A stretch of DNA of 64,000 nucleotides, from NCBI GenBank assembly GCA_021292165.1, contig CM037877.1, forward strand, positions 26,920,197-26,984,196. Direction: 5' to 3'. Made by a program: the position numbers and the translations under genes. The DNA comes from Shinisaurus crocodilurus. Lineage: Eukaryota > Chordata > Lepidosauria > Squamata > Shinisauridae. Below, piece after piece: positions 3,155-61,618 of this stretch (position 1 is the stretch's first letter; the number at the start of each line of letters is the position of its first letter). The notes below the pieces were generated by a model. That model was given only the letters and a program-made list of their open reading frames with translations. It made no database searches and had not been told where the DNA came from.

Positions 3155-5075
3155 CTGTTTTTTTAATATAAATTTTATTTACTTTTCAAAACAATATAAC
3201 AAAAAACAGTAATAACACAACAATTTAACTTAAACCACATAAATAAATCATAAAGTGCACACCCCCCACACCCCTCCTAGGGACCACTTTATATACTTCC
3301 ATCCCCTTGATCAAATGAATTCCAAATTCCAAAAATATAACATATCCTGACAAGGCATACTCCCCCTCTCCTTTATTAATACATAGTCTAATAATTGGTT
3401 CCATATATCCATAAAATTACTATTCTTTAACTGTCCTTTTTTGCATTTGATACTACAAGTTAGTTTATCATTTAGGGCTATATCCCAAACTTCCTTATAC
3501 CAATCAGTTATTAGGAAAACATGTTGTACTTTCCATTTTCTCGCTATCATTAGCCTAGCCGCAGTTAACAAGTTTACAATTAATTCCTTCGTATTTTGGT
3601 CACAAATAAGTTTCTCCGTTATTGATAACAATGCTAGTTTTGGACAGACCTCTAAGTTAATACCAATAATTTCCGATATTTCTGTAAAAACCTCTCGCCA
3701 AAAAACCAGTACATTTTTACAACTCCACCACATATGAGCATATGTCCCTTTTTCCTGACATCCTCTCCAACAAAATGCGGAGCAATTATTATCTATTCTA
3801 TTTAATCTTACTGGAGTTAAGTACCATCTCCAAATTAGTTTATAAAAATTCTCCTTTATCCTAGTTGACATAACTTTCACAATCCATCTATCCCATATGT
3901 TGTTCCAACCCACCTTCGAGGTCACCTCTTCAAATTCATTATCCCATACTGTCTTTAACTGGTCATCTTGTTCTTCCGCTTTTTGAATCACTCTATATAA
4001 ATCCCTTGTTATACCTCTTGTTGACTCATTGCCAAGTTGTAGGCCATCTCTAGATGTAACAATCTTTTCAAATTTAGTTAAATCTCTCTCATACTCAGTT
4101 TTCCTTTTCCACTTCTTCGACCACTGTTCTAACTGTAATAAATTTAACCACAACACTCTTCTTCTCCCAACAATTTTCAATATTTGGTCTCTAGTCCCCA
4201 TCTTTTCCACCCAATCAGATAATCTAATAACCCTTTCTTTTCTTAGTTTACCCTCCAAAACCAATCTTAAATTTTTGGGGAAATCATTTAGAGCCACCAC
4301 CGGAGTTAATGGAGAAATCCCTGGTATAAATATGGCCGGGTGACCGGCCAGATGGGCGATTGATAAATGTAATAAATAAAGAAATAAATATGTTCCTCAT
4401 AGTACTCCAAATCTCTAACAAACTTCTTTAAAAAGGGTTGTCTATGTTTTTTTATCAAGTTATTATTTTTTTTGAGAAAAAGAATATTCTCCAAAGAATT
4501 TCGTAATTCAGATGTTTCTAACTCCAACCACATTATTTCATTAGGCCATGCTATAATATCCACTGTATGTCACTCTTAATTGATTAGCTATATAATACCA
4601 TTTTAAATTTGGAAGACCCAAACCCCCAACTTTTTGTGCTTTATACCATCTTGTTTTGGTAATCCTAGACTTTTTCCCTCCATTACAATATGTGTTAATA
4701 ATTGTTTGCCATTCTTTAAGTTCCTTATCTGATATCGCACTTGGTATCATCCTAAATAAAAAAATTATCTTGGGCAGAATCTTCGTTTTAATCAAAGCAA
4801 TTCTACCAAACCAGGAAAGTCCAATTTTTTAATACTCCTCTATTTTATTCTTAACCTCATTCTTTAATTTCCTATAATTCTGTTCTCCCAATTTATCTAT
4901 ATCTTTTGGAATTACAATTCCTAAGTATTTAATTACATTATCAATCTTAACATTGCTTTTTTTCCTACACATTTCCATCTCTTCTCTTTTACTATAATTA
5001 AACAACAAAAACTTAGATTTGTCCCAATTAATCTGTAGCCCCATTACTGACCATGTGTTTATTGTCCATATTTTT
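3155..5075 (-). mobile_element. L1 LINE, 3' part of ORF2, 5'-truncated and disrupted
   Basis: The minus-strand frame 4300-3311 (329 codons) encodes an L1 ORF2 C-terminus: YKLIWRWYLTPVRL, then CWRGC...GTYAHMWWSC (the Cys-rich end). Upstream pieces 4563-4306, 4795-4541 and 5110-4829 are the same protein broken by stops or frameshifts. Its 3' end is the AT-rich stretch near 3155. About 65 bp at 4325-4392 (CCGGCCAGATGGGCGAT plus an AATAAA-like tail) look like a foreign repeat tail lodged in the ORF. Confidence 0.88.
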
Positions 5076-5076
5076 A

Positions 5077-5132
5077 TAGCCCCTGAAGAAGGTCCAGAAA
5101 TATATGCCACAGGACCAAAACGTGTTGGGCTA
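5077..5132 (+). ncRNA. Hammerhead-ribozyme-like motif (Penelope-like fragment)
   Basis: Folded by eye. Stem I TAGCCC (5077-5082) pairs with GGGCTA (5127-5132). The core CTGAAGA at 5083-5089 fits CUGANGA. Stem II GGTCC (5091-5095) pairs with GGACC (5112-5116). AAAA follows (GAAA expected, so G12 is changed), then the short ACGTGTT stem III and cleavage region. AATAAA follows at 5141. It probably derives from a Penelope-like element; loss of G12 should weaken cleavage. Confidence 0.55.
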
Positions 5133-5410
5133 CTTGGAAGAATAAAACTTTATTTTTCTACATCCCGAGACTTGTTCTCTCCTTTCCATTGACTTCTATA
5201 AGGCCAGCCAGTATGCTATTGGTTCTCCAGATCACCTGACAAATTGCAATACCCCTCTCTGGCCAGTATCTGGGTGGCGGTGTGGCATTACAACCAAACC
5301 AATAGCTCCCTTCAAGAGCTAGTCTGGTAGTGCAGGGAATATGGCTCTGGGGCCCTACCACCAGAGTCTCTGGTAGAAGGGCCATACCATAGATGTTTTA
5401 CCACATGTAT

Positions 5411-11479: not shown

Positions 11480-11948
11480 AATCTGGCTGTCAAGCTGGAC
11501 TTCCCAATCTCCCCCACTCACCCAAAAATGGGGTAAAGGGACAAAAAGCCACTGCTAGCTGCAAACAGCTCGCAATCATGGCGGGGAGGGCTACAAGCCA
11601 GTGCCAGCTGCCCCCAAGTGCTGCTTGGGCACTTGTGGGGCAGCTGGCACCAGGAGGTGCCCAGGAAAGCTTGATAAGAGCAGCAAGGGGGTTCGCTGCT
11701 CTTGACAAGTGGGTCTCTAGCTGATTCCTGGTACCCACGTTGGGGTCTGTCACCCGGGTTTGGATGACACAACATCCCATCGTGGGTGCAACAAACCCTA
11801 CAACAACTCATGGATTGTCAGGGTGGCTTCTTGTTGCCCTCAAGCAAGCCACCCTGCGGGAATCGGTCTGGGTTCGTATAACACGGCAATCCGCCATGGC
11901 TTATCATCCACAATGGGCTGTCGTGTCATGCAAACCCAGTAAGTGTCT
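11480..11948. mobile_element. Inverted-repeat DNA element, GGGTTC family, copy B
   Basis: It shares with the copy at 1-247 the stretch from GCTGCTCTTG to CGTGTCATGCAAACCCAG, and with 50340-51062 the upstream CTTGACAAG region. Internal GCCACCCTG inverted repeats. Non-coding. Confidence 0.6.
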
Positions 11949-34600: not shown

Positions 34601-34736
34601 CAGGGCTCTCCTACCTTGGGTCCCCAGATGTTGCTGGACTACAGCTCCCAGAATCCCTTGCCATTAGCCATGCTGGCTGGGTATGCTGGGAGCTGTAGGC
34701 CAGCAACATCTGGGGACCCAAGGTAGGAGAGCCCTG
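34601..34736. mobile_element. hAT-type MITE with imperfect 8-bp duplication
   Basis: A hairpin with ends CAGGGCTCTCCTACCTTGGG and its complement. Flanks AGCTAGCG (34593-34600) and AGCTAGAA (34737-34744) agree at 6 of 8. Related to 49721 and 58150. Confidence 0.82.
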
Positions 34737-42200: not shown

Positions 42201-45200
42201 TAAATAAACAAAACGGTGAGGTTCAGCTGCATGCTATGTATTTAATGTAGCATGTAGTGTAGCCTTCATTTGCAAAAAATAACTTCGCCAGCCTTGAGTA
42301 CTATGCAGCTTGACTCGGGCACCATTTGCTCCTCCGCCTCTGGCAGCAAAATGTTTTGGGATGGTCGTGTTAAAGGCTTGTGCCCATCACCCAACAGATC
42401 ACAACTCCTGCAGCAGTGTTTGCTTCTCTGCAGTGTTTGCTTCTCTACACCTTGGACAGGTGGCTCTGGCAACAGCCTCTTCCCTGGCATTATCCTATGG
42501 TCCTTTGTGTTATTTCCACCTGTGCTTTTATTTTCCAAAGGCTTTTTAGGAATGCGAAATCGCAAGTCCAACAGAAGCGTACGGCTGTGTCCCATTTGCT
42601 AAGCAGGGTTGCAACATTTAAGCAGTAGGCTGAAGCTGAGTATTATGGGCACACTAGTTTGCTGTCCGAGGCTATTTGGTTCTGGGATGTGACCGAAATA
42701 GTAAATGAAAAAAACAAAGAGTAACGGTGGCATTTCCTTCTTACTGCAAATTCTGGCTTTTATTAAAATGCAAGTTATTTCACACTTTGCTCAATAGCTC
42801 AAAAAGGCACCTGTTTATTGATTATATTTGTATTCCACCCTTCTTTCAAGGAGCTCGAGACAGTCAGGTACATGGCAGAGGTCTCTGTGTGTCCCCCTCC
42901 TCCATTTTATCCTCACAACAACCCTCTGCGGTAGGATAGGGTGAGAGAAATAGTGAGTGGCCCAAGTTTACTCAGTGAGTTTCATAGCTGAGTAGAAACT
43001 GGAAACCAAATCACCGCAGCCATAGGCAGGCACTCTAACCACTACACCACACGTACAGAGTTTGCTAACATGGAAATTTACTAGGTTGCTGTCTAATTAA
43101 TCAACTATGGATGCAATCCTATGTATGTTTAGACAGAAAAAAGTCCTACAACTCCCAGCATGCCCCAACCAGCTATGCTGGCTGGGCATGCTGGGAGTTG
43201 GAGGCCATTTTTTTCTGTCTAAACATGCATAGGATTGCGGCTTTAAAAATTCAGCCCATTTGCAAGGTATCTGATGTTGCTTTTGATGCAGCAGTGCAAA
43301 AAAAATATATGTGTATGTGTTTCTGAAGTTCAAGCAAATTGTAAAGGACTGTTCACAGATGGGGCTTTAAAAGCCGATTTATATCAGTTTGTAATGCAAA
43401 TGTAAAACCTGCCTTGATCAAAATACCCATTTGAATTTTGAATGGCAGAAACCTCTCTTCCACTTACTATTCATTAGCAATGACCACACAATTGTGTAAA
43501 TCATGCCAGAGAGATGCAAAAGCAATTAAATCTTGCCTGTGAAACCACTCAGATGCCTTAATCCAGCTAGGAAGCCCTGTAGCTGCAGAGGCAGGCTTGT
43601 GTTGTATTATGTATCCTAGCTGGATGGGGACCTTCATAATTCCACAGCCCATTCTGGACCTGCTCACTGGTAGTTGTGTAAATAAACTATAATCTGACCA
43701 ATTACAGTATTTTTCCATGTATAAGACTATACTTTTTCCTAAAATTGTTAGACTAAAAATTGAGGGTCGTCTTATACATGGAAGTAAGCCGAGGAGAAAA
43801 CCACCCGGTTGCGAAACTGCCCAGTGGGGGGCGTCTTATACATGGGGGCGTCTTATAGACGGAAAAATACGGTAACTGTTTGGGAAGGAGGTGTGGAGAA
43901 CTGCATTTATACACACACATACACACACGCGCGCGCACACCTACCTCCCTGTCCCCTCCAAGACAGCTGATTAGCAGGATTGCAGCTCATTTTACAAGAC
44001 TGTTCATGTATACTGTTGGATAGCAACCAGCCTGCAATCCTATGCACACTAACTAGCAAGTAAACAAGTAGGACCTGCAACAAAATGTTGCAGTGTGGGA
44101 TGCTCCTCTTCAGGGTTCCAGCCACTCCATTCTAGCCACTCCACTTCCTCCCTCCCTGTTGTCACATGTCAACACTGCACGCACGCGCACGCACGCACGC
44201 ACGCACACAAACAGTTACTCAGCATTCTGTACCCAATGAGCTCTTTTTCCTAAATGGTTTTTGTTTGTTGTTTGCTTTTTACTTCTGCAATCTCTGGGGT
44301 TCCCTGAAGACTGCTGATGTGTCCCTTTTGTACATGGATGGTACCGTTTTGGCTCCCTACGGGTAGATTCCACTGGAAATAGTGGGACTTGCTCCCAAGT
44401 AAAAGTAATTAGGAATGGCATCTACGGTGTATAGGCAGTGCTTGATGATAATATAGGCAGTGCTTCTTTATACGCTAAGGAAAGCAAGCGTGTGAGGTGT
44501 GAACTCCTGTTCAAAATGATCCTAGGCATTTCAAAAAACATTAATAAATGCAGTGCTACTATGATGCCTCTGTAATAATGAGTGGAAGATGGAGAAATAC
44601 AAAATGCAACGCTGTCATATGCACATTTACTCAGAAGCAAATAACAGAATCATAGAGTTGGATAGGACCTTGGAAGACATCTAGAACAGCCTTCCCCAAC
44701 CTGGTGCGCTCCAGATGTGTTGGACTACAACCCCCATCATCAGGAGTTGTAGTCTAAGACATCTGGCGGGGCATCAGAATGGAGAAGGCTGGTTTAGAAC
44801 TAGTTGCTGAAGTGTCCATAGGACTGCAGCCTCAGACAGACGTTATGACCCAACACCTTCTACCAAGAGAGGCTGATCCCTCTTCAGTAAAGGTAGAGAT
44901 CCATCTGCTGCTATTTATGTGCAAGCTGGTTAGCCTGAACTCCAACTCAATTGGATCGTCAGGATCCCATGGATAATCATGCCTCTCTTGGTATCCAGTT
45001 CTGAAGAATCCAATCCTGTTTTCTTCTGCTGCCAGGAACAGTAAGGACACTCACAGTGTTGAATTTGAGGCACCTAAGGGCCTATGTACATGTCATGCAG
45101 AATAAGTTGGAAGTACTGTACCACTTTAGACTGCCGATGGGAGATTACCTTTTTGAATGCTTCTCTCACATACCCAAATAAATAAACAAATAAAGACCCT

Positions 45201-48200
45201 GCCTACTTGCAGCAAACTAGTTTATCAGAGAGAAAGGTTTAACATAGCCTATTACCTGGTGTTCTAATTTATTACATGCACGGGGGTGGGAGGGTTATGT
45301 GGAGCAGCATGACAAAATATGACACACACCCCACCTGCAGCCTGAAGTGATACAGCCTAGAATTCTACCACATTGGTCTGCCAGATTCTGCATAATATGT
45401 AAATAGCTTCTCACAACGCCAATGCTAATCAGGACTGACATCAGTACCAACATCTGTTAGGTGTTGTGGTTGAAGGTGAGAGCGAGGGGAATCTGATTCT
45501 GAAGTCTCACAACACCCATCATGATGGTGGTGGTGGTGGGAGAGGAGCTACTGAAGCTGCATCCCTGGGATAGCTTGCCTCATGCAAGAACACACTGACT
45601 AGGTTCAGATAACACAATAACCCACACTCCAGGGCTGAGTATGGGTTAAGCGTGGGTTGTCGTTGAATCATGGGTGATTGTGTTGCCTGAACCCAGATGA
45701 GATAACAAACCATGGTGAACAACCCACAGTTCACAACCCAACAACAAACCATGGGTTCTCTTCATGGGTTGTTTGTGGTTAACAAGCCATGGCTTGTTAG
45801 TGCAACTGGGTTCAGACAACACGATAACCCACATTTCAACAACAACCTATGGTTCAACAACAACCCACACTCAACCCATACTCGGTCCTTGAGTGTGGGT
45901 TATTGTGTTGTCTGAACCCAGTCACTGTCTGCACCACCAGATGTGTGGGGTTCTTTCCACCAGGCCGGCGCTACCGCTAGGCAGACCCAGGCGGCTGCCT
46001 AGGGCGCGTGGCGGAACAGGGCGCAGCGTTTCTGCGCCCCTTCCTCGTCTCCAGCGCGCTCCTGCCCCGCCTGCCGCCTCCGCTGCGCCTCCCCGCCCGC
46101 CTGCCAGCCGCTGCCGCCGCCGCCACTGCACCTCCCCCCCGCGCGCCCACGCGCCCGCCAGCCACCTACCTACCTTCCCGTCATTTCTGGAGCCCCGCCG
46201 GCGTTGTTTTGGCGGGAGGAGGAACCAGGGCAACAGGGCTTAAACAGCCCTGTTGCCCTGATTTCCCCAGCAAAAAAAATAAGCGTGGGGGTCCCGTCGC
46301 GTCGGAGGAGGAGGCGGCAGCGGCAGCAGCAGCAGCAGCCAGCAGCGGGGGCGGGGGGAAGGTAGGTGGTGGTGGGGCGGCGGCGGCGGCGCGGGGGGGG
46401 TTGCAGAGCAGGGCTGCTTTGCTCCGGAGCCCCCCCCACGGCACGAGAGGGGGGGCGCTAAATATAATTTGGCCTAGGGCGCCAAACAGCCCTGCACCGT
46501 TCCTGCTTTCCACACAAATCTATTGTACAGCTCTTCCCATTGTTGAATGCAGACTGCATCCTCTTGACCGAGGTAGATATCATAAGATTATCTATTACAG
46601 TGATGGCGAACCTATGGCATGGGTGGCACAGCTGGCATGCAGGAACCTCTCTGTGGGCACTCAAGCCATTGGTCACCAGATCGCAAAAAGACTGTCCCCT
46701 TCTGCAAAACACTAATTATTTTGTTCTTTCTCACAGTGTGGAACAGAATGATTTTATTCTAGAATTCCTGTTACAGAATTATTTTCTACATTGTTATCAC
46801 ATTTAAAAGATTTTGAAGAATGATGCACAGAGCATGGCTTGGATGTAAAGCCCTAACAGTTGACCTGAGTGCTGCATGTGTTGCTCTCAAACTAACGGAT
46901 TATGAGCCAAGGTTTGACAAATTATCAGCATGCATGCAATAGCAAAAATCACATTGATTGTGCAAAAGCATGCCCAATGCAAACTTTTACCTAATGCAGT
47001 GTTTGCAGTCCAAGACATAAAGTGTTTAAAATGTGTTAAGCACGTTTAGTTTTCTTGTTTATCTTGCTCATCCTAGTACAGGTTGACTTTTACTTTTACT
47101 AATCCAACACCTGTAGAAGCAGGGAAAGGACCCAGAGTAAAGCTTGCCCCATACAATTTCAGTCTGGCATATAATCATATTACAAGTTGAGAATCCCTTA
47201 TCCAAAAATACATGTGCCTAATTATTTTAAAAGTTTGTATCAATTCCCTTCAGGCTATGTGTACAATGTAGTACTATAATAATTTTTTTAGTTGATTTTT
47301 TTTCCAACAAAAAACTGTTTGTATCATTGAAAGCTCTGTTATTGTGTTTTTCTTTTAAGACAAAAGATGTTAATTAGTTCGGACTGTATGAGTTGTTTTT
47401 CTAAAACTAAAACCTCGGTATTCAGGTTTAATTGCAGTGTTGGCACTTTGAAATAAATAAGTTGGTTTTGTGTTGCAGTTTGGGCACTCGGGCTCAAAAA
47501 GGTTCGCCATCACTGATCTATTAGAACCCTGGTCAGAGATTTTAGCCTATGACCACCCTTCTGAGAATTCCCCAGGCACCTCCCTGTCAACAGCTATACA
47601 CCGTTTCTACATAAAGTGTCTTTTTCCATGTGGGTAAAGCAGAGGTGGTCTCCAGAAGATTCAGTGCTGGCAGAGTTAGGTTTAAACCCTTGGTTTGCTG
47701 GCAGCCTTGGCTGACCCTCTGTCAGCCCCATTTATCCAGTTGCAAAACATAAAAATTAGATCCTACCTTTAAAAATCGTGTAAATTTAAGGCACTATGCA
47801 TATTAATGATATAAATAATAATTTGTATTCCCCCCCGCCCCCATTTCAGAGGAGTTTTCACCATGCCAGGATGATTCATATGCTGAAGGAAGGGTGTCTA
47901 AAACAAGAAGTTCTAACCGTGTATTTCTGCCGGGAGCAATCCCCAACCACTCTACAAGGAGCATCACCATAATGGTCATGACAGCTATTCGATCCAGTGC
48001 CCATTTTTTTTACCTTTGCAGATACCAAACTCATCACCAAAATCATCCTCTTCGGAAAAAAACTGGCACTTCAGTCCGGGGCCACACTTGACACCGTCCA
48101 TACCGGCGACGGTCCGGTAGCAAGTCTCCCCCAAGGCTGCAGCGCAGACCCTGCAGCAGCCGCAGTCATCCAGCACCGTCCGCTTACAGTGCAGAGGGCT

Positions 48201-48317
48201 TTTGCATTCGCGGCTGTCGCAGGACTCTGGGCAGTCTACTGCATATTTGGTGCTCCAGGTAGCTCCAACAGCATGCACGGGTACCAGAAGTAGAGTGAAG
48301 ACCAGGAAACTCTCCAT
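36148..48317 (-). CDS. ESM1: ESM1 (endocan), complete three-exon coding region
   Basis: Spliced CDS: 48317-48014, 39419-39264, 36248-36148, 561 bp including TGA, giving 186 residues (human endocan has 184). Endocan is a secreted dermatan-sulfate proteoglycan made by endothelium. Visible in the sequence: a signal peptide at about residues 1-20; an IGFBP-like Cys-rich region with 18 cysteines, the family number, including CGCCRVCAA at 53-61 and KCGPGLKC at 77-84; a Phe-rich KFSFFQ patch at 131-136; and SGDG at 159-162, the Ser-Gly glycosaminoglycan site. The C-terminus ends KWLNPR, as in human. Both introns are GT-AG and phase 1, matching the human exon layout. The start is the first in-frame ATG, with G at -3 and +4; the upstream in-frame triplet at 48350 is TTG. 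No frame disruption was seen. I found no neighbouring host gene. Identity rests on recall of the human protein, not on a search. Confidence 0.96.
36261..36280. repeat. (GA)n tract inside the ESM1 exon 3 acceptor region
   Basis: Ten GA units; on the transcribed strand (CT)n ends 12 nt before the AG acceptor at 36250-36249. Confidence 0.9.
36585..36728. mobile_element. MITE, CAGCCTTCCCC family, copy 2
   Basis: CAGCCTTCCCCAGCCTGGTG at the left; CCACCAGGTTGGGGAAGACTG at the right. A decayed relative precedes it at 36312-36410. Lies in ESM1 intron 2. Confidence 0.78.
37440..37690. mobile_element. Penelope-like inverted pair with decayed hammerhead motifs
   Basis: Two head-to-head copies. Plus: CCGATGA at 37610-37616, stem AATAGACT/AGTCCATT, AAAC, then GTGC pairing with GCAT, then AATAAATCTG. 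Minus: TTGATGA at 37594-37588, then AATAAATTTG. The outer arms share GTGGCAC/GTGCCAC and AGAGTCCTG/AAGACTCT. Lies in ESM1 intron 2. Confidence 0.55.
37857..38549. mobile_element. hAT-type non-autonomous element with GAGTC arrays
   Basis: Ends CAGGGATG and CATCCCTG, flanked by a perfect 8-bp duplication GTATACAG (37849-37856, 38550-38557). Both subterminal regions consist of GAGTC/GACTC pentamers (CTCGAGTC, CACGAGTC). An internal junction at about 38385-38420 (GACTCGTCAACA/TGTTGACGAGTC) suggests a second element placed tail to head. Lies in ESM1 intron 2. Confidence 0.85.
38590..39010 (+). mobile_element. Non-LTR retrotransposon C-terminus with C2H2-like finger
   Basis: Reads CHLPKQLLYSQLKDGKQNIG, QYKRFKDVHKANLKKCNI, NWEALAHE, then LCPHCGKLCGSRIGLHSHLR and a final H: a Cys2-His2 finger at the protein end. 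Two in-frame stops. The fold is familiar from non-LTR elements; I cannot fix the clade. Lies in ESM1 intron 2. Confidence 0.7.
39264..39419 (-). CDS. ESM1: ESM1 coding exon 2
   Basis: 156 bp, phase 1 at both ends, so skipping it keeps the frame, as in the known human exon-2-less isoform. The acceptor reads ttgtcttgtag/AG and the donor CATACAG/gtaaat. It encodes residues 102-153, starting ECPYGTYGLECRRTC, with six cysteines and the FSFF patch. It is two codons longer than human exon 2. The last 13 or so residues (SKPPNRRKLIPHT) are more basic than I recall for human (SSNRFVSLT region). Confidence 0.94.
39515..39600. repeat. AAGTAAGTCCC dispersed repeat copy
   Basis: GCAATTCTATTTGCATGTAC, GGAAGTAAACCCCATTGAA, ACATGCATAGGATTGGATG. 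Lies in ESM1 intron 1. Confidence 0.65.
39641..39878 (+). mobile_element. tRNA-derived SINE
   Basis: GTGGCGTAGTGG head, GGGTTCTAGTCCCC B box, same body as 10601, AATAAATAAAT tail. Directly followed by an AAGTAAGTCCC fragment. Lies in ESM1 intron 1. Confidence 0.87.
40057..40152. mobile_element. Palindromic MITE family 1, partial copy
   Basis: ATGCATGTTTAGACAG...CAACTCCCAGCATTCCCC and a short complementary arm GCATGCTGGGAATTGTAAG. Confidence 0.75.
40153..40739. other. ESM1 intron 1 DNA, LINE 3' UTR-like then unassigned
   Basis: 40180-40400 reads like a LINE 3' UTR (TTAGCTGCCTTGAGTGCTCA, ATTAAAATGAAATAAAT). The rest is unassigned. Confidence 0.45.
40740..40960 (-). mobile_element. CR1 LINE 3' end fragment
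   Basis: Antisense CR1 end: AGAATCATGGACTTGGAAGG, CTAGTCCAACCCCATG, GGAAGTTCTTCCTAAGGTTT. Confidence 0.82.
41127..41575. mobile_element. Dispersed GC-rich repeat, copy 2 (rearranged)
   Basis: GGGCGCAATCCTATGGCCAC then GACAGAGTCTAGGCGGCCAT; the interior has CTCTGACCTCAGA..CTGAGGTCAGA inverted blocks like those at 7123 and 60709. Confidence 0.5.
41576..42139. other. ESM1 intron 1 DNA, unassigned
   Basis: Includes a CCAGCCCTACCATTAGGC fragment at 41705. A-run at 41960. No exon recognised. Confidence 0.4.
42140..42203. mobile_element. Palindromic MITE family 1, half copy
   Basis: One arm only: GGCTGGGAGTTGTAAGCC, CTGCCTAAACATGCGTAGG, ATTGCGCC. Confidence 0.7.
42204..42821. other. ESM1 intron 1 DNA, unassigned
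   Basis: The overlapping frames at 42270-42628 on both strands have no known motif; 42335-42365 is a repeat end. Confidence 0.4.
42822..43057 (-). mobile_element. tRNA-derived SINE, older type
   Basis: On the minus strand a tRNA-like head (GTGTAGTGGTTAGAGTGCC), TTTCTACTCAGCTATGAAAC, core CACAATTGTTGTGAGGAT-like, tail with AATATAATCAA. Confidence 0.7.
43109..43245. mobile_element. Palindromic MITE family 1, near-intact copy
   Basis: Two arms of about 65 bp: GGATGCAATCCTATGTATG...CCAACTATGC-type centre, then complement ending GCATAGGATTGCGGC. The best-preserved hairpin of the family here. Confidence 0.85.
43246..43704. other. ESM1 intron 1 DNA, unassigned
   Basis: No exon or classified repeat recognised. 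Confidence 0.4.
43705..43872. mobile_element. 168-bp MITE with TA duplication, copy 2
   Basis: CAGTATTTTTCCATGTATAAG at the left and TTATAGACGGAAAAATACGG at the right, TA on both sides (43703-43704, 43873-43874). Same length as 29502-29669, opposite orientation. Lies in ESM1 intron 1. Confidence 0.86.
43910..43941. repeat. (CA)n/(CG)n tract
   Basis: ACACACACATACACACACGC then GCGCGCACAC. Confidence 0.9.
44178..44212. repeat. (CACG)n microsatellite
   Basis: GCACGCACGCGCACGCACGC then ACGCACGCACACA. Confidence 0.92.
44213..44640. other. ESM1 intron 1 DNA, unassigned
   Basis: A fragment of the AAGTAAGTCCC repeat lies at 44365-44405 (GGGACTTGCTCCCAAGTAAA). Otherwise unassigned. Confidence 0.4.
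44687..44791. mobile_element. MITE, CAGCCTTCCCC family, inserted in a CR1 end
   Basis: CAGCCTTCCCCAACCTGGTG to GGAGAAGGCTG, 105 bp. Flanks ATCTAGAA and GTTTAGAA agree at 6 of 8. It sits in a CR1 3' piece (AATCATAGAGTTGGATAGG) at 44646-44686. Confidence 0.78.
44792..45599. other. ESM1 intron 1 DNA, unassigned
   Basis: Short (GGT)n near 45524-45538; no exon recognised. Confidence 0.4.
45600..45931. mobile_element. Inverted-repeat DNA element, GGGTTC family, copy D
   Basis: Ends AGGTTCAGATAACACAATAA and TTATTGTGTTGTCTGAACCC, with multiple internal AACCCAC/GTGGGTT and AACCATGG units and an internal copy of the terminus at 45810-45830. Lies in ESM1 intron 1. Confidence 0.72.
45962..46492. mobile_element. 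GC-rich CpG-dense repeat in ESM1 intron 1
   Basis: Starts GGCCGGCGCTACCGCTAGGC and ends CTAGGGCGCCAAACAGCCCTG, similar at its left end to the CAGGGCTGGCCCTACCATTAGGC element at 32063. The interior is CpG- and GCC/GCA-rich. Its long plus-strand frame is low-complexity and not believed. Confidence 0.6.
46598..47515. mobile_element. hAT-type non-autonomous element, 918 bp, perfect 8-bp duplication
   Basis: Ends CAGTGATGGCGAACCT and AGGTTCGCCATCACTG-type (AAAAGGTTCGCCATCACTG). The duplication ATCTATTA is perfect (46590-46597, 47516-47523). The interior is AT-rich without transposase. Lies in ESM1 intron 1. Confidence 0.9.
47524..48013. other. ESM1 intron 1, proximal part
   Basis: No repeat or exon recognised apart from the exon 1 donor at its upper edge. 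Confidence 0.4.
48014..48317 (-). CDS. ESM1: ESM1 coding exon 1
   Basis: Encodes residues 1-101 plus the first base of codon 102. It holds the signal peptide (hydrophobic LVFTLLLVPVHAV) and 12 cysteines of the IGFBP-like N-terminal module, ending GICK. The donor reads CAAAG/gtaaaa on the minus strand. Signal cleavage is probably just before Trp21 (human mature endocan starts WSNNY; here WSTKY). Confidence 0.96.
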
Positions 48318-50339: not shown

Positions 50340-50779
50340 GGAATTTTAACCTTTCAGCTGGCGGCTGCTGCAGCACCGGATAGGAGGAGCCCTTTCACGA
50401 AGGGGGGGAGCCTCTGACAGCCGTCCCCAAGTGCCGCTTTGATACTTTGGGGGTGGCTGTCATCGGTGCGCTCGCCCAGAGCCGCTTGACAAGAGCGGCA
50501 ACTGCAAGCCTTTTTGCTGCACTTGCCAAGCCACTCTTTGGAGGCTTGGGCTACCCCTGGGCTTGTGGTGTCATCTGGGTTCAGATGAGACACAGCAAGC
50601 CCAGGGGTGGCTACGAAACCCTACAACAAGCCATGGTCTGTCGGGGTGGCTTATATAAGCCACCCCAAAGAAGCCATGGCTGGTTCACATGACAGAAACA
50701 GGAGGAGATAAGCATCCAAATGCAATGGAAAAAAGGAGAGAACTAGGTTCTCAGGATGCAAAAATCTTTATTAAAGGAG

Positions 50780-50825
50780 CCCGACGCGTTTCGGCCTGTG
50801 TATTTTTCAAGGCCTTCCTCAAGGG
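50780..50825 (-). ncRNA. Hammerhead-ribozyme-like motif, minus copy
   Basis: Minus strand: CCC, core TTGAGGA (50822-50816), stem II GGCCT/AGGCC, GAAAC, GCGTC, then GGG pairing with CCC. Mirror of 50917-50963. Confidence 0.55.
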
Positions 50826-50916
50826 GTTGTAAAAGAGTCTGCAGATTACTTAAACAACTAATGTCTTTCACTGTTTCAGTGGCAGACTCTTTTACATCTG
50901 CAGACTCTTTTACAAC

Positions 50917-50963
50917 CCCTTGAGGAAGGCCTTGAAAAATACACAGGCCGAAACGCGTCGGGC
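50917..50963 (+). ncRNA. Hammerhead-ribozyme-like motif, plus copy
   Basis: Stem I CCC (50917-50919)/GGG (50960-50962); core TTGAGGA (CUGANGA with C3 changed) at 50920-50926; stem II GGCCT (50928-50932)/AGGCC (50945-50949); GAAA; then ACGCGT plus C as a minimal stem III and predicted cleavage after GTC at 50959. Confidence 0.58.
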
Positions 50964-51062
50964 TCCTTTAATAAAGATTTTTGCATCCTGAGAACCTAGT
51001 TCTCTCCTTTTTTCTGGTTCACATGACACAGCAAGCCCCCCTGGTGTGAACCCGGTCAATGT

Positions 51063-57948: not shown

Positions 57949-58405
57949 GGATGCGTGTACAAGCAAAACACGAGTTCATCAAAGTTCTCCCAATTCCACA
58001 TCAAAGCTCATTCTGTCTCATGTCTGTATCACATTGCAGTCTGTTCTTTTTGTTTTTGCATGAGAATTCGTGTGGTTTCTGTGTGGATTTTCCCCAAATG
58101 TATGCATCAATTCTGCACATCTTTGAAATGAACACATTCTTCTCCATTGTCCCCAGATGTTTTTGGCCTACAACTCCCAGCATGCCCCAGCCAGCTATGC
58201 TGGCTGGGGCATGCTGAGAGTTGTAGGCCAAAAACATCTGGGGACCCAAGGTTGGAGAACACTGCTCTAAAGTATCTTTGTGCGCATTTCCCCAAATTAT
58301 GGCCATAGATTGCCTCCAAGTCCACATTCACTCCAGAAAGTGCAAACTGGGTAAATCTTGATTTAAAAAATGAACTGAAATGATGAATTTCTCATGCACA
58401 CCTAC
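57949..58405. mobile_element. Inverted-repeat element remnant with nested MITE
   Basis: AGGGATGCGTGTACAAG at the left and CTCATGCACACCTAC at the right are loosely inverted. It is interrupted by a 5'-truncated copy of the 49721-type MITE at 58150-58264 (TCCCCAGATGTTTTTGGCCT to GGTTGGAGAACACTG). Confidence 0.5.
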
Positions 58406-59028: not shown

Positions 59029-59422
59029 CAGCCTTCCCCAACCTGGTGCCCTCCAGATCTTTTGAACTTCAGTTCCCATCAGTCTCAGCCAGCAATGGTC
59101 AAGAATGATGGGAGTTGTAGTCCAAAACATCTGGGATTGGATCTATGATCTGCCTTCTGCGAGCGGAAGTGGCCTTCAGTGACAGGAAGGGCTCCAGTCA
59201 CAGAAGGCCCCTCCACACAATTTTTGGGGATGCCTCCTCCCCACACACACCACAGCTCACCGCCCCATCCAGCAGGGTCTCCTGACTCTCTGTGTAGCAT
59301 TTTCAGGGGGCTGGAGGGGCTACGGTGGGAAGGAGGGGGTGGGAAGTCCACTCCCACCAGCACAGTTGATCCAGTGTAAATCTGGATCTAATGCATGGAA
59401 GGCACCAGACTGGGGAAGGCTG
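59029..59422. mobile_element. MITE, CAGCCTTCCCC family, split by about 265 bp
   Basis: CAGCCTTCCCCAACCTGGTG to CCAAAACATCTGG, then foreign sequence 59132-59396, then AAGGCACCAGACTGGGGAAG to GCTG. The inserted piece is unclassified and begins and ends with GGATCTA motifs. Confidence 0.65.
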
Positions 59423-61465: not shown

Positions 61466-61618
61466 CACACAACCTGGTGCCCTCGAGATGTGTTGGACTG
61501 CAATTCCCACAGTTTGCAGCCCCGCATGGACATGGGTGCGTATTGGCCACGTTGGCTGGGAATTATGAGATTTGCAGCCCAACACATCTCGAGGGCACCA
61601 GATTGAGGAAGGCTGATG
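61466..61618. mobile_element. MITE, CAGCCTTCCCC family, diverged hairpin
   Basis: CAACCTGGTGCCCTCGAGAT, GTGTTGGACTGCAATTCCCA and complementary GCAGCCCAACACATCTCGAG, GGAAGGCTG. Confidence 0.72.

What the first reader, a model, noticed from the sequence alone, without database searches (positions are those of the whole stretch)
50695..51013. Inverted pair of hammerhead-like motifs in an insertion with a perfect 15-bp duplication
Seen: CTGGTTCACATGACA on both sides of 319 bp whose two arms are inverted copies, each with core, GGCCT/AGGCC stem II, GAAA, ACGCGT and GTC cleavage triplet. Stem II differs in sequence from the 5077 copy (GGTCC/GGACC) yet still pairs, which is compensatory change. The host DNA is itself a transposon, so the order of events is clear.
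Basis: partly seen in the sequence, partly recalled or inferred. Interest (0 to 1): 0.75.

Follow-up and report, generated by a model that had tools for sequence, protein, structure and literature searches.

The report
Inverted Penelope retrotransposon end pair
The insertion is one of many young copies in a lizard or snake genome in which a Penelope-like retrotransposon wrote its end sequence twice, head to head, into one break; this is a known kind of element, but the copies read here follow a one-tail rule that bears on how these elements insert.

Summary
In detail: a 319-nt insert (50695-51013) between perfect 15-bp repeats, with two identical 118-nt inverted arms, a 49-nt middle and a 34-nt tail on one side only. 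It is a Penelope-like element (PLE) insertion: two pseudo-LTRs head to head. In the window's own 2.19-Gb genome the arm is multicopy (51 places identical over 118 nt). Of 46 distinct loci read, 38 are head-to-head pairs; 36 of 38 have one tailed and one untailed arm plus a 10-21-bp duplication, and 31 of 36 junctions are distinct, so pairs form anew at each insertion. Best model: two-sided target-primed reverse transcription from two adjacent internal start sites, as published in vitro for an Anolis PLE. The family has an ORF-bearing copy and a PLE reverse transcriptase. The motifs are therefore probably inert, and any transcript would fold them into one long hairpin. A new member of a known kind.

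The parts
50680..50694 (+). left target-site duplication, CTGGTTCACATGACA
50695..50728 (-). 34-nt 'tail': the left unit beyond the place where the right arm ends (sense on - strand)
   Evidence: 'tail' as used in PMC11167929 and PMC3846280
50729..50846 (-). left pseudo-LTR arm, identical to the right arm
50780..50825 (-). left hammerhead-like motif (core TTGAGGA at 50822-50816 on the - strand; GAAACGCGTCGGGCTCC at 50792-50776)
50847..50889 (-). head (5') part of the left unit; holds the palindrome CACTGTTTCAGTG at 50869-50881
50890..50895 (.). 6-nt head-to-head junction between the two units
50896..51013 (+). right pseudo-LTR arm, without tail
50917..50962 (+). right hammerhead-like motif: stem I CCC/GGG (50917-50919, 50960-50962), core TTGAGGA (50920-50926, C3 is U), extra A 50927, stem II GGCCT/AGGCC (50928-50932, 50945-50949), GAAA 50950-50953, ACGCGT 50953-50958, C17 50959
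51014..51028 (+). right target-site duplication
5077..5188 (+). diverged related unit with its own hammerhead-like motif (core CTGAAGA 5083-5089, AAAA for GAAA); not part of this insertion

Best explanation
It is a short Penelope-like retrotransposon insertion: two pseudo-LTRs (pLTRs) head to head, without the ORF. Shown here: such pairs recur in the genome with mostly different junctions, a target-site duplication of mostly 14-15 bp, and one tail each. Inferred: the element's protein cut both strands about 15 nt apart; each 3' end primed cDNA synthesis on element RNA at one of two adjacent internal sites (one at the AAAAAA stretch, the other about 32-34 nt further on, which leaves the tail). 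Copying ran towards the RNA's 5' end, which lies only some 165-195 nt upstream, so only the pLTR was copied. The two cDNA ends were then joined. The hammerhead motif was carried along as template sequence; with C3 changed to U it is probably inactive here.
For: 36 of 38 pairs: one tailed plus one untailed arm and a duplication of 10-21 bp (13 at 14 bp, 8 at 15 bp), all 36 duplications different; 61 of 4600 random intervals give 10 bp or more. None of 8 single or tandem copies has one. In the 9 loci fetched only through the arm-only search (L054-L062), 6 of 6 duplicated pairs are mixed; in the 20 loci of that search for which letters are held, 16 of 16. 31 of 36 junctions distinct; in 34 of 36 one arm begins within 14 nt of the unit's 5' end. 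Outer ends cluster at two places. Mean difference between arms of one copy is below that of random pairings (2.67 against 4.49 per about 82 columns, 0 of 2000 permutations, 30 copies). ORF-bearing tandem copy L037; RT domain and PLE relatives. PMC11167929 (parts 1-3 of 4 read): the Anolis PLE protein cuts and extends both strands and starts at two internal sites that bound the tail.
Against: No enzyme or transcript of this family was tested. The GIY-YIG endonuclease was not seen in the letters held. PMC11167929 reports no difference in start site between the strands in vitro, which does not by itself predict a strict one-tail rule. 8 of 46 loci are not pairs, and 2 of 38 pairs are short foldbacks of the head without duplication. 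Two of the untailed arms (L019, L028) end about 12-20 nt short of the usual place. Three loci share one junction. The arm comparison is weak copy by copy: the own arm was strictly nearest in 1 of 30, tied in 14, and another copy's arm was nearer in 15, because the young copies are nearly identical; the mean leans on the older copies L051-L053. All loci are best-scoring ones (40 of 1380 and 40 of 1190 candidates).
Confidence: 0.7

Rival explanations
1. Self-priming: one cDNA (or antisense RNA) folds back at the palindrome CACTGAAACAGTG near the unit's 5' end and copies itself, giving two inverted arms from one priming event, as proposed for rotifer Penelope elements.
For: PMC3846280 (passages read) favours self-priming on an antisense template for palindromic head-to-head junctions. 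L041 and L043 have just a short copied-back head (s7-62, s31-59) next to a tailed arm and no duplication, as expected for it.
Against: It does not by itself explain why the second arm lacks the tail in 36 of 36, nor the 14-15-bp duplications. A rearrangement or deletion inside one arm only (L046, L050) fits separate synthesis, though it could also have come later.
Confidence: 0.2
2. A working ribozyme pair or retrozyme-like element: the two hammerheads cut a transcript out of the locus for circular RNA or regulation.
For: Stem II, GAAA, palindromic ACGCGT and GUC are kept.
Against: C3 is U. The motifs are inverted, not in direct tandem, so a transcript has one sense motif only, and the arms fold into one long hairpin (-239 kcal/mol predicted). 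Mutating the ribozyme did not affect insertion of the Anolis element in vitro (PMC11167929).
Confidence: 0.03
3. A foldback DNA transposon or MITE with long terminal inverted repeats, copied as a unit.
For: Long inverted repeats, duplications, many copies; three loci share a junction.
Against: 31 of 36 junctions differ, the ends are unequal (one tail), duplication length varies from 10 to 21, and the family has a PLE reverse transcriptase.
Confidence: 0.02
4. Assembly artefact or chance.
For: Perfect inverted repeats can be misassembled.
Against: 36 copies with 36 different duplications.
Confidence: 0.01

Closest known systems
Poseidon_Ac (PAc), Penelope-like element of Anolis carolinensis (PMC11167929, parts 1-3 of 4 read)
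   Same: pLTR with a small hammerhead (core CUGAGGA, one extra nucleotide, GAAA, self-complementary stem III string, H17 = C), an optional tail of 30-40 nt bounded by two start sites, tandem units.
   Different: Different family: outside the hammerhead the aligned part shows little similarity; here the amplified copies carry U at C3, and the likely ORF start lies beyond the tail instead of in stem II.
Penelope elements of the rotifer Adineta vaga (PMC3846280, passages read)
   Same: Inverted pLTRs, a 31-bp tail on one of the inverted pLTRs, duplications of 8-10 bp, palindrome at the pLTR 5' end, solo pLTRs.
   Different: In the passages read the inverted pairs enclose an ORF or its remains; here most sampled copies are only the two pLTRs, and duplications are mostly 14-15 bp.
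Small hammerhead variants of PLEs that cleave as dimers (Cervera and De la Pena 2014; Lunse et al. 2017; recalled, neither paper held; PMC6155905, passages, describes PLE motifs as minimal and lacking helix III)
   Same: Very short stem III with a self-complementary string (ACGCGT).
   Different: C3 replaced by U in the amplified copies; activity not tested.
Retrozymes (PMC4918200, search listing only; PMC7229834, passages)
   Same: Hammerhead motif in a non-autonomous retro-insertion.
   Different: Inverted, not direct, arrangement; belongs to a PLE family.

Membership tests
Penelope-like element (PLE) insertion | reverse transcriptase of PLE type encoded by the family | tested here: met
   The 585-codon frame of L063 overlaps and continues the N-terminal ORF P0001 of L037; RVT_1 E = 1.1e-8; relatives carry PF26215, PF28514 and some PF01541
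Penelope-like element (PLE) insertion | GIY-YIG endonuclease domain | tested here: inconclusive
   Not in the frame of L063 that is held, whose 3' end is missing; listed for some relatives; the family search did not complete
Penelope-like element (PLE) insertion | tandem pLTR-ORF-pLTR copy of the same family | tested here: met
   L037: two units in one direction with a 276-codon ORF piece between; only an N-terminal piece of the ORF is left there
Penelope-like element (PLE) insertion | inverted pLTRs with a tail of about 30-40 nt on one of them | tested here: met
   36 of 38 pairs
Penelope-like element (PLE) insertion | target-site duplication of variable length | tested here: met
   10-21 bp in 36 of 38 pairs
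Hammerhead ribozyme, small PLE variant | core CUGANGA ... GAAA (consensus recalled; PAc as printed in PMC11167929) | tested here: not met
   window arms have UUGAGGA; met in ORF-bearing L037
Hammerhead ribozyme, small PLE variant | stems I and II, short stem III, UH cleavage site | tested here: met
   3 bp, 5 bp and the palindrome ACGCGT, then C
Hammerhead ribozyme, small PLE variant | match to a curated Rfam hammerhead model | tested here: inconclusive
   no match, but the intact-core L037 is not matched either, so the models do not seem to cover this variant
Hammerhead ribozyme, small PLE variant | self-cleavage | not testable with these tools
   needs an RNA assay
Retrozyme | direct tandem hammerheads releasing a circular RNA | tested here: not met
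   motifs are inverted; circular RNA itself not testable here

The most novel reading that the evidence does not exclude
The one-tail rule (36 of 36 duplicated pairs; 6 of 6 among loci fetched through the arm-only search alone) means that a PLE insertion complex is built asymmetrically: the two cut strands are handed to two different adjacent start sites, never the same one, perhaps by a protein dimer on one RNA. In addition the burst of these pairs came from RNA with a disabled hammerhead (C3 to U), so ribozyme cleavage is dispensable for it, and its loss may even favour it by keeping the 5' pLTR joined to the start sites.
Probability: 0.37. Interest if true: 0.65.

Novelty: new member of a known kind. 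Interest (0 to 1): 0.5.

Why it matters
How Penelope-like elements insert is largely open; in the papers seen only one full-length PLE protein has been studied in vitro (PMC11167929). A young, abundant family whose insertions are reduced to two pLTRs is a clean natural record of the insertion step: both start sites, the stagger of the cut and the joining of the cDNA ends can be read from each copy. It also offers a test of what the conserved PLE hammerhead is for, since the amplified copies carry a core change that the ORF-bearing copy lacks.

Tried and rejected
Two arms from two different source RNAs: L046 and L050 first looked like it (19 and 18 differences between arms), but the differences are mainly a rearrangement and a deletion inside one arm; dropped. 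Replication of the foldback as a unit: rejected on 31 of 36 distinct junctions, though L008, L028 and L050 share one. A bias as to which arm is truncated: none seen (18 against 15, 3 ties, p = 0.23). Empty site in the paralogue at 11.6 kb: score 105 against a maximum of 103 in 200 shuffles and 107.5 in 200 random pieces, so not shown. Scan of viral contigs for the motif: 4 stretches, by my estimate no more than chance; not followed. Rfam gives no hammerhead, but the control L037 is not matched either. Genome-wide counts of C3 and U3 units, of tails and of GIY-YIG, and the search for an empty site, could not be run because the genome search gave only three answers.

Rows dropped before counts: L036 and L045 (segmental duplicates of L035 and L044), and ten loci that are the reverse-strand match of a place already held (L014, L015, L020, L023, L026, L027, L030-L032, L034). 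L001-L004 (viral contigs) were not used. Of the 40 loci scored, letters are held for 20. One search printed 35 of the 36 duplicated pairs (L011 left out).

Full report
What is there. The insert runs from 50695 to 51013, between two perfect 15-bp copies of CTGGTTCACATGACA at 50680-50694 and 51014-51028. The right arm (50896-51013) is repeated as an exact reverse complement at 50729-50846, 118 of 118. Left of the left arm lie 34 nt that the right side lacks (the 'tail'), and between the arms 49 nt, 43 of which continue the left unit to its head (5') end. The sense unit, numbered s1-s195, is the reverse complement of 50889-50695.

The hammerhead-like motif. In each arm: stem I CCC/GGG, core TTGAGGA, one extra A, stem II GGCCT/AGGCC, GAAA, palindromic ACGCGT, cleavage triplet GTC. 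Consensus cores read CUGANGA (recalled); the Anolis element printed in PMC11167929 reads CUGAGGA with one extra U. So C3 is U here. PMC11167929 reports that C3G and G8C each abolish cleavage of the Anolis motif; I saw nothing on C3U in parts 1-3 of 4. The 5077 copy has CTGAAGA but AAAA for GAAA. Rfam finds no hammerhead in the window at E up to 10 (and in the two stretches alone), but it also misses the intact-core copy L037, so this says little against the motif. The whole insert folds into one long hairpin (-239 kcal/mol): a transcript from either strand carries one sense motif paired with its own antisense.

The genome. The window lies in a 2.19-Gb assembly. Its ESM1 exon has its best E-value with Varanus komodoensis (90% identity) and its highest identity among the top hits with Candoia aspera (95%), so the host is a squamate. 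The tool scored 40 of 1380 candidates for the insert (82 matches) and 40 of 1190 for the arm (65 matches, 51 of them identical over all 118 nt), so all counts are of the best-matching, youngest copies. I examined 48 places, 46 after removing two segmental duplicates. 38 are head-to-head pairs, 8 are single or tandem.

The rule. Of the 38 pairs, 36 have one arm that reaches the tail end and one that does not, and all 36 are flanked by a direct repeat of 10-21 bp, 13 of them 14 bp and 8 of them 15 bp, all different. The other 2 pairs (L041, L043) have only a short inverted copy of the head and no duplication. None of the 8 single or tandem copies has a duplication of 10 bp or more. Random intervals in the same loci gave 10 bp or more in 61 of 4600. 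In the 35 pairs printed the tailed ends lie within some 15 nt of each other, and 33 of 35 untailed ends lie at or within a few nt of the AAAAAA stretch; L019 and L028 end shorter. The insert query contained one tail and may favour mixed pairs; the arm-only query does not. Of the 20 loci for which I hold letters, 16 are duplicated pairs and 16 of 16 are mixed; the others are L043, L054, L056 and L058. Eleven of those 20 were held because, so the clean subset is the 9 loci L054-L062: 6 duplicated pairs, 6 of 6 mixed. With equal and independent use of the two sites, mixed pairs would be about half.

Junctions and templates. 31 of 36 left/right head positions are distinct; in 34 of 36 at least one arm begins within 14 nt of the unit's 5' end, in 5 both do; overlaps (15), short extra stretches (20) and one flush joint occur. 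Either arm may be the shorter (18 against 15, 3 ties, p = 0.23). So most pairs were made separately; L008, L028 and L050 share a junction. On average, arms of one insertion resemble each other more than arms paired at random (2.67 against 4.49 differences in about 82 columns; 0 of 2000 permutations, 30 copies). Copy by copy this is weak: the own arm was strictly nearest in 1 of 30, tied in 14, and an arm of another copy was nearer in 15, because most copies are nearly identical. The mean leans on an older subfamily (L051-L053), where both arms carry that subfamily's marks at most of the marked positions. This fits one kind of template per insertion but does not prove it.

The element behind it. 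L037 holds two units in the same direction about 1.1 kb apart, and one continues through the tail into an ORF (276 codons read, P0001). P0001 has 138 matches in the genome, many of them distant. At one of them an open frame of 585 codons (L063), which overlaps the end of P0001, matches RVT_1 (E = 1.1e-8) and 996 proteins at E up to 0.001 (120 listed); among the best that bear a species name are newt, axolotl and Anolis proteins, with the domains PF26215 and PF28514 in nearly all those listed and PF01541 (GIY-YIG) in some. The 3' end, where a GIY-YIG domain would lie, was not read.

C3. In the 30 pairs aligned, C3 is U in 58 of 60 arms, C in 1, missing in 1. A looser scan of the loci held gives U in 63 and C in 3 of the 66 motifs that matched the pattern, duplicates included; the three C are both units of L037 and one arm of L051. 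Since the copies are young and nearly alike, this may be one mutation in one source, and the C3 side rests on one ORF-bearing copy. It suggests that the source RNA did not need an intact core, in line with PMC11167929, where ribozyme mutants still inserted in vitro.

How it works. PMC11167929 shows for the Anolis PLE that the protein cuts and extends both strands and starts copying at two internal RNA sites, and that the stretch between them is the tail. Here the two ends of each insertion look like those two sites. I therefore read each pair as one insertion in which both cut strands primed, one at each site, both cDNAs ran towards the RNA 5' end and were joined. Because the sites lie within about 200 nt of the presumed RNA 5' end, a transcript copied from its first unit yields only pLTR, which would explain the short product. 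Shown: anatomy, recurrence, ends, duplications, family. Inferred: two-sided priming, the position of the RNA 5' end, joining. PMC3846280 (passages) described inverted pLTRs with a tail on one of them in a rotifer and proposed self-priming; that explains L041 and L043 better than the main class.

What is not settled. Whether two-tail or no-tail pairs exist elsewhere in the genome, whether C3-type units also form pairs, the endonuclease, and any activity. I found no paper that states the one-tail rule as a count; the searches were in an open-licence library, of whose hits I read only some passages, and which lacks Cervera and De la Pena 2014, Lunse 2017 and Craig 2021, so it may well be in print.

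Noticed in passing
window 50400-50694 and 11596-11851: The host of the insert is a repeat with nested hairpins (50550-50611, 50625-50685); a 67% paralogue over 273 aligned columns lies at 11596-11851. Its class was not determined.
   Followed up: partly
window 5077-5188: Second, diverged hammerhead-bearing unit, without a clear duplication (only two 7-nt repeats found). The neighbouring ORF at 3311-4396 looks L1-like (recalled; no Pfam match).
   Followed up: partly
window 58155-58239, 34609-34728, 43133-43218, 59055-59132, 61486-61589: Palindromic stretches scoring below threshold as mir-5408/mir-3160; probably hairpin MITEs (recalled), not microRNAs.
   Followed up: no
window 47988-48314 (-): Exon of ESM1 (endocan) with IGFBP domain; nearest named proteins are squamate.
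   Followed up: yes
L041 4812-5054, L043 4911-5136: Tailed arm next to a short copied-back head and no duplication: possibly self-primed by-products.
   Followed up: partly
L046 2137-2324: One arm has its hammerhead core replaced by a palindromic patch that resembles the head sequence, as if the reverse transcriptase switched template.
   Followed up: no
G000:C3:69584557-69584655: A P0001 match to residues 1-36 lies beside a unit, which suggests a tail that runs past the usual site and beyond the likely start codon; letters not held.
   Followed up: no
L008, L028, L050: Three loci with different duplications share the same head junction (s33/s10, 8-nt overlap): a microhomology hot spot, or copying of a pair as a unit.
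   Followed up: no
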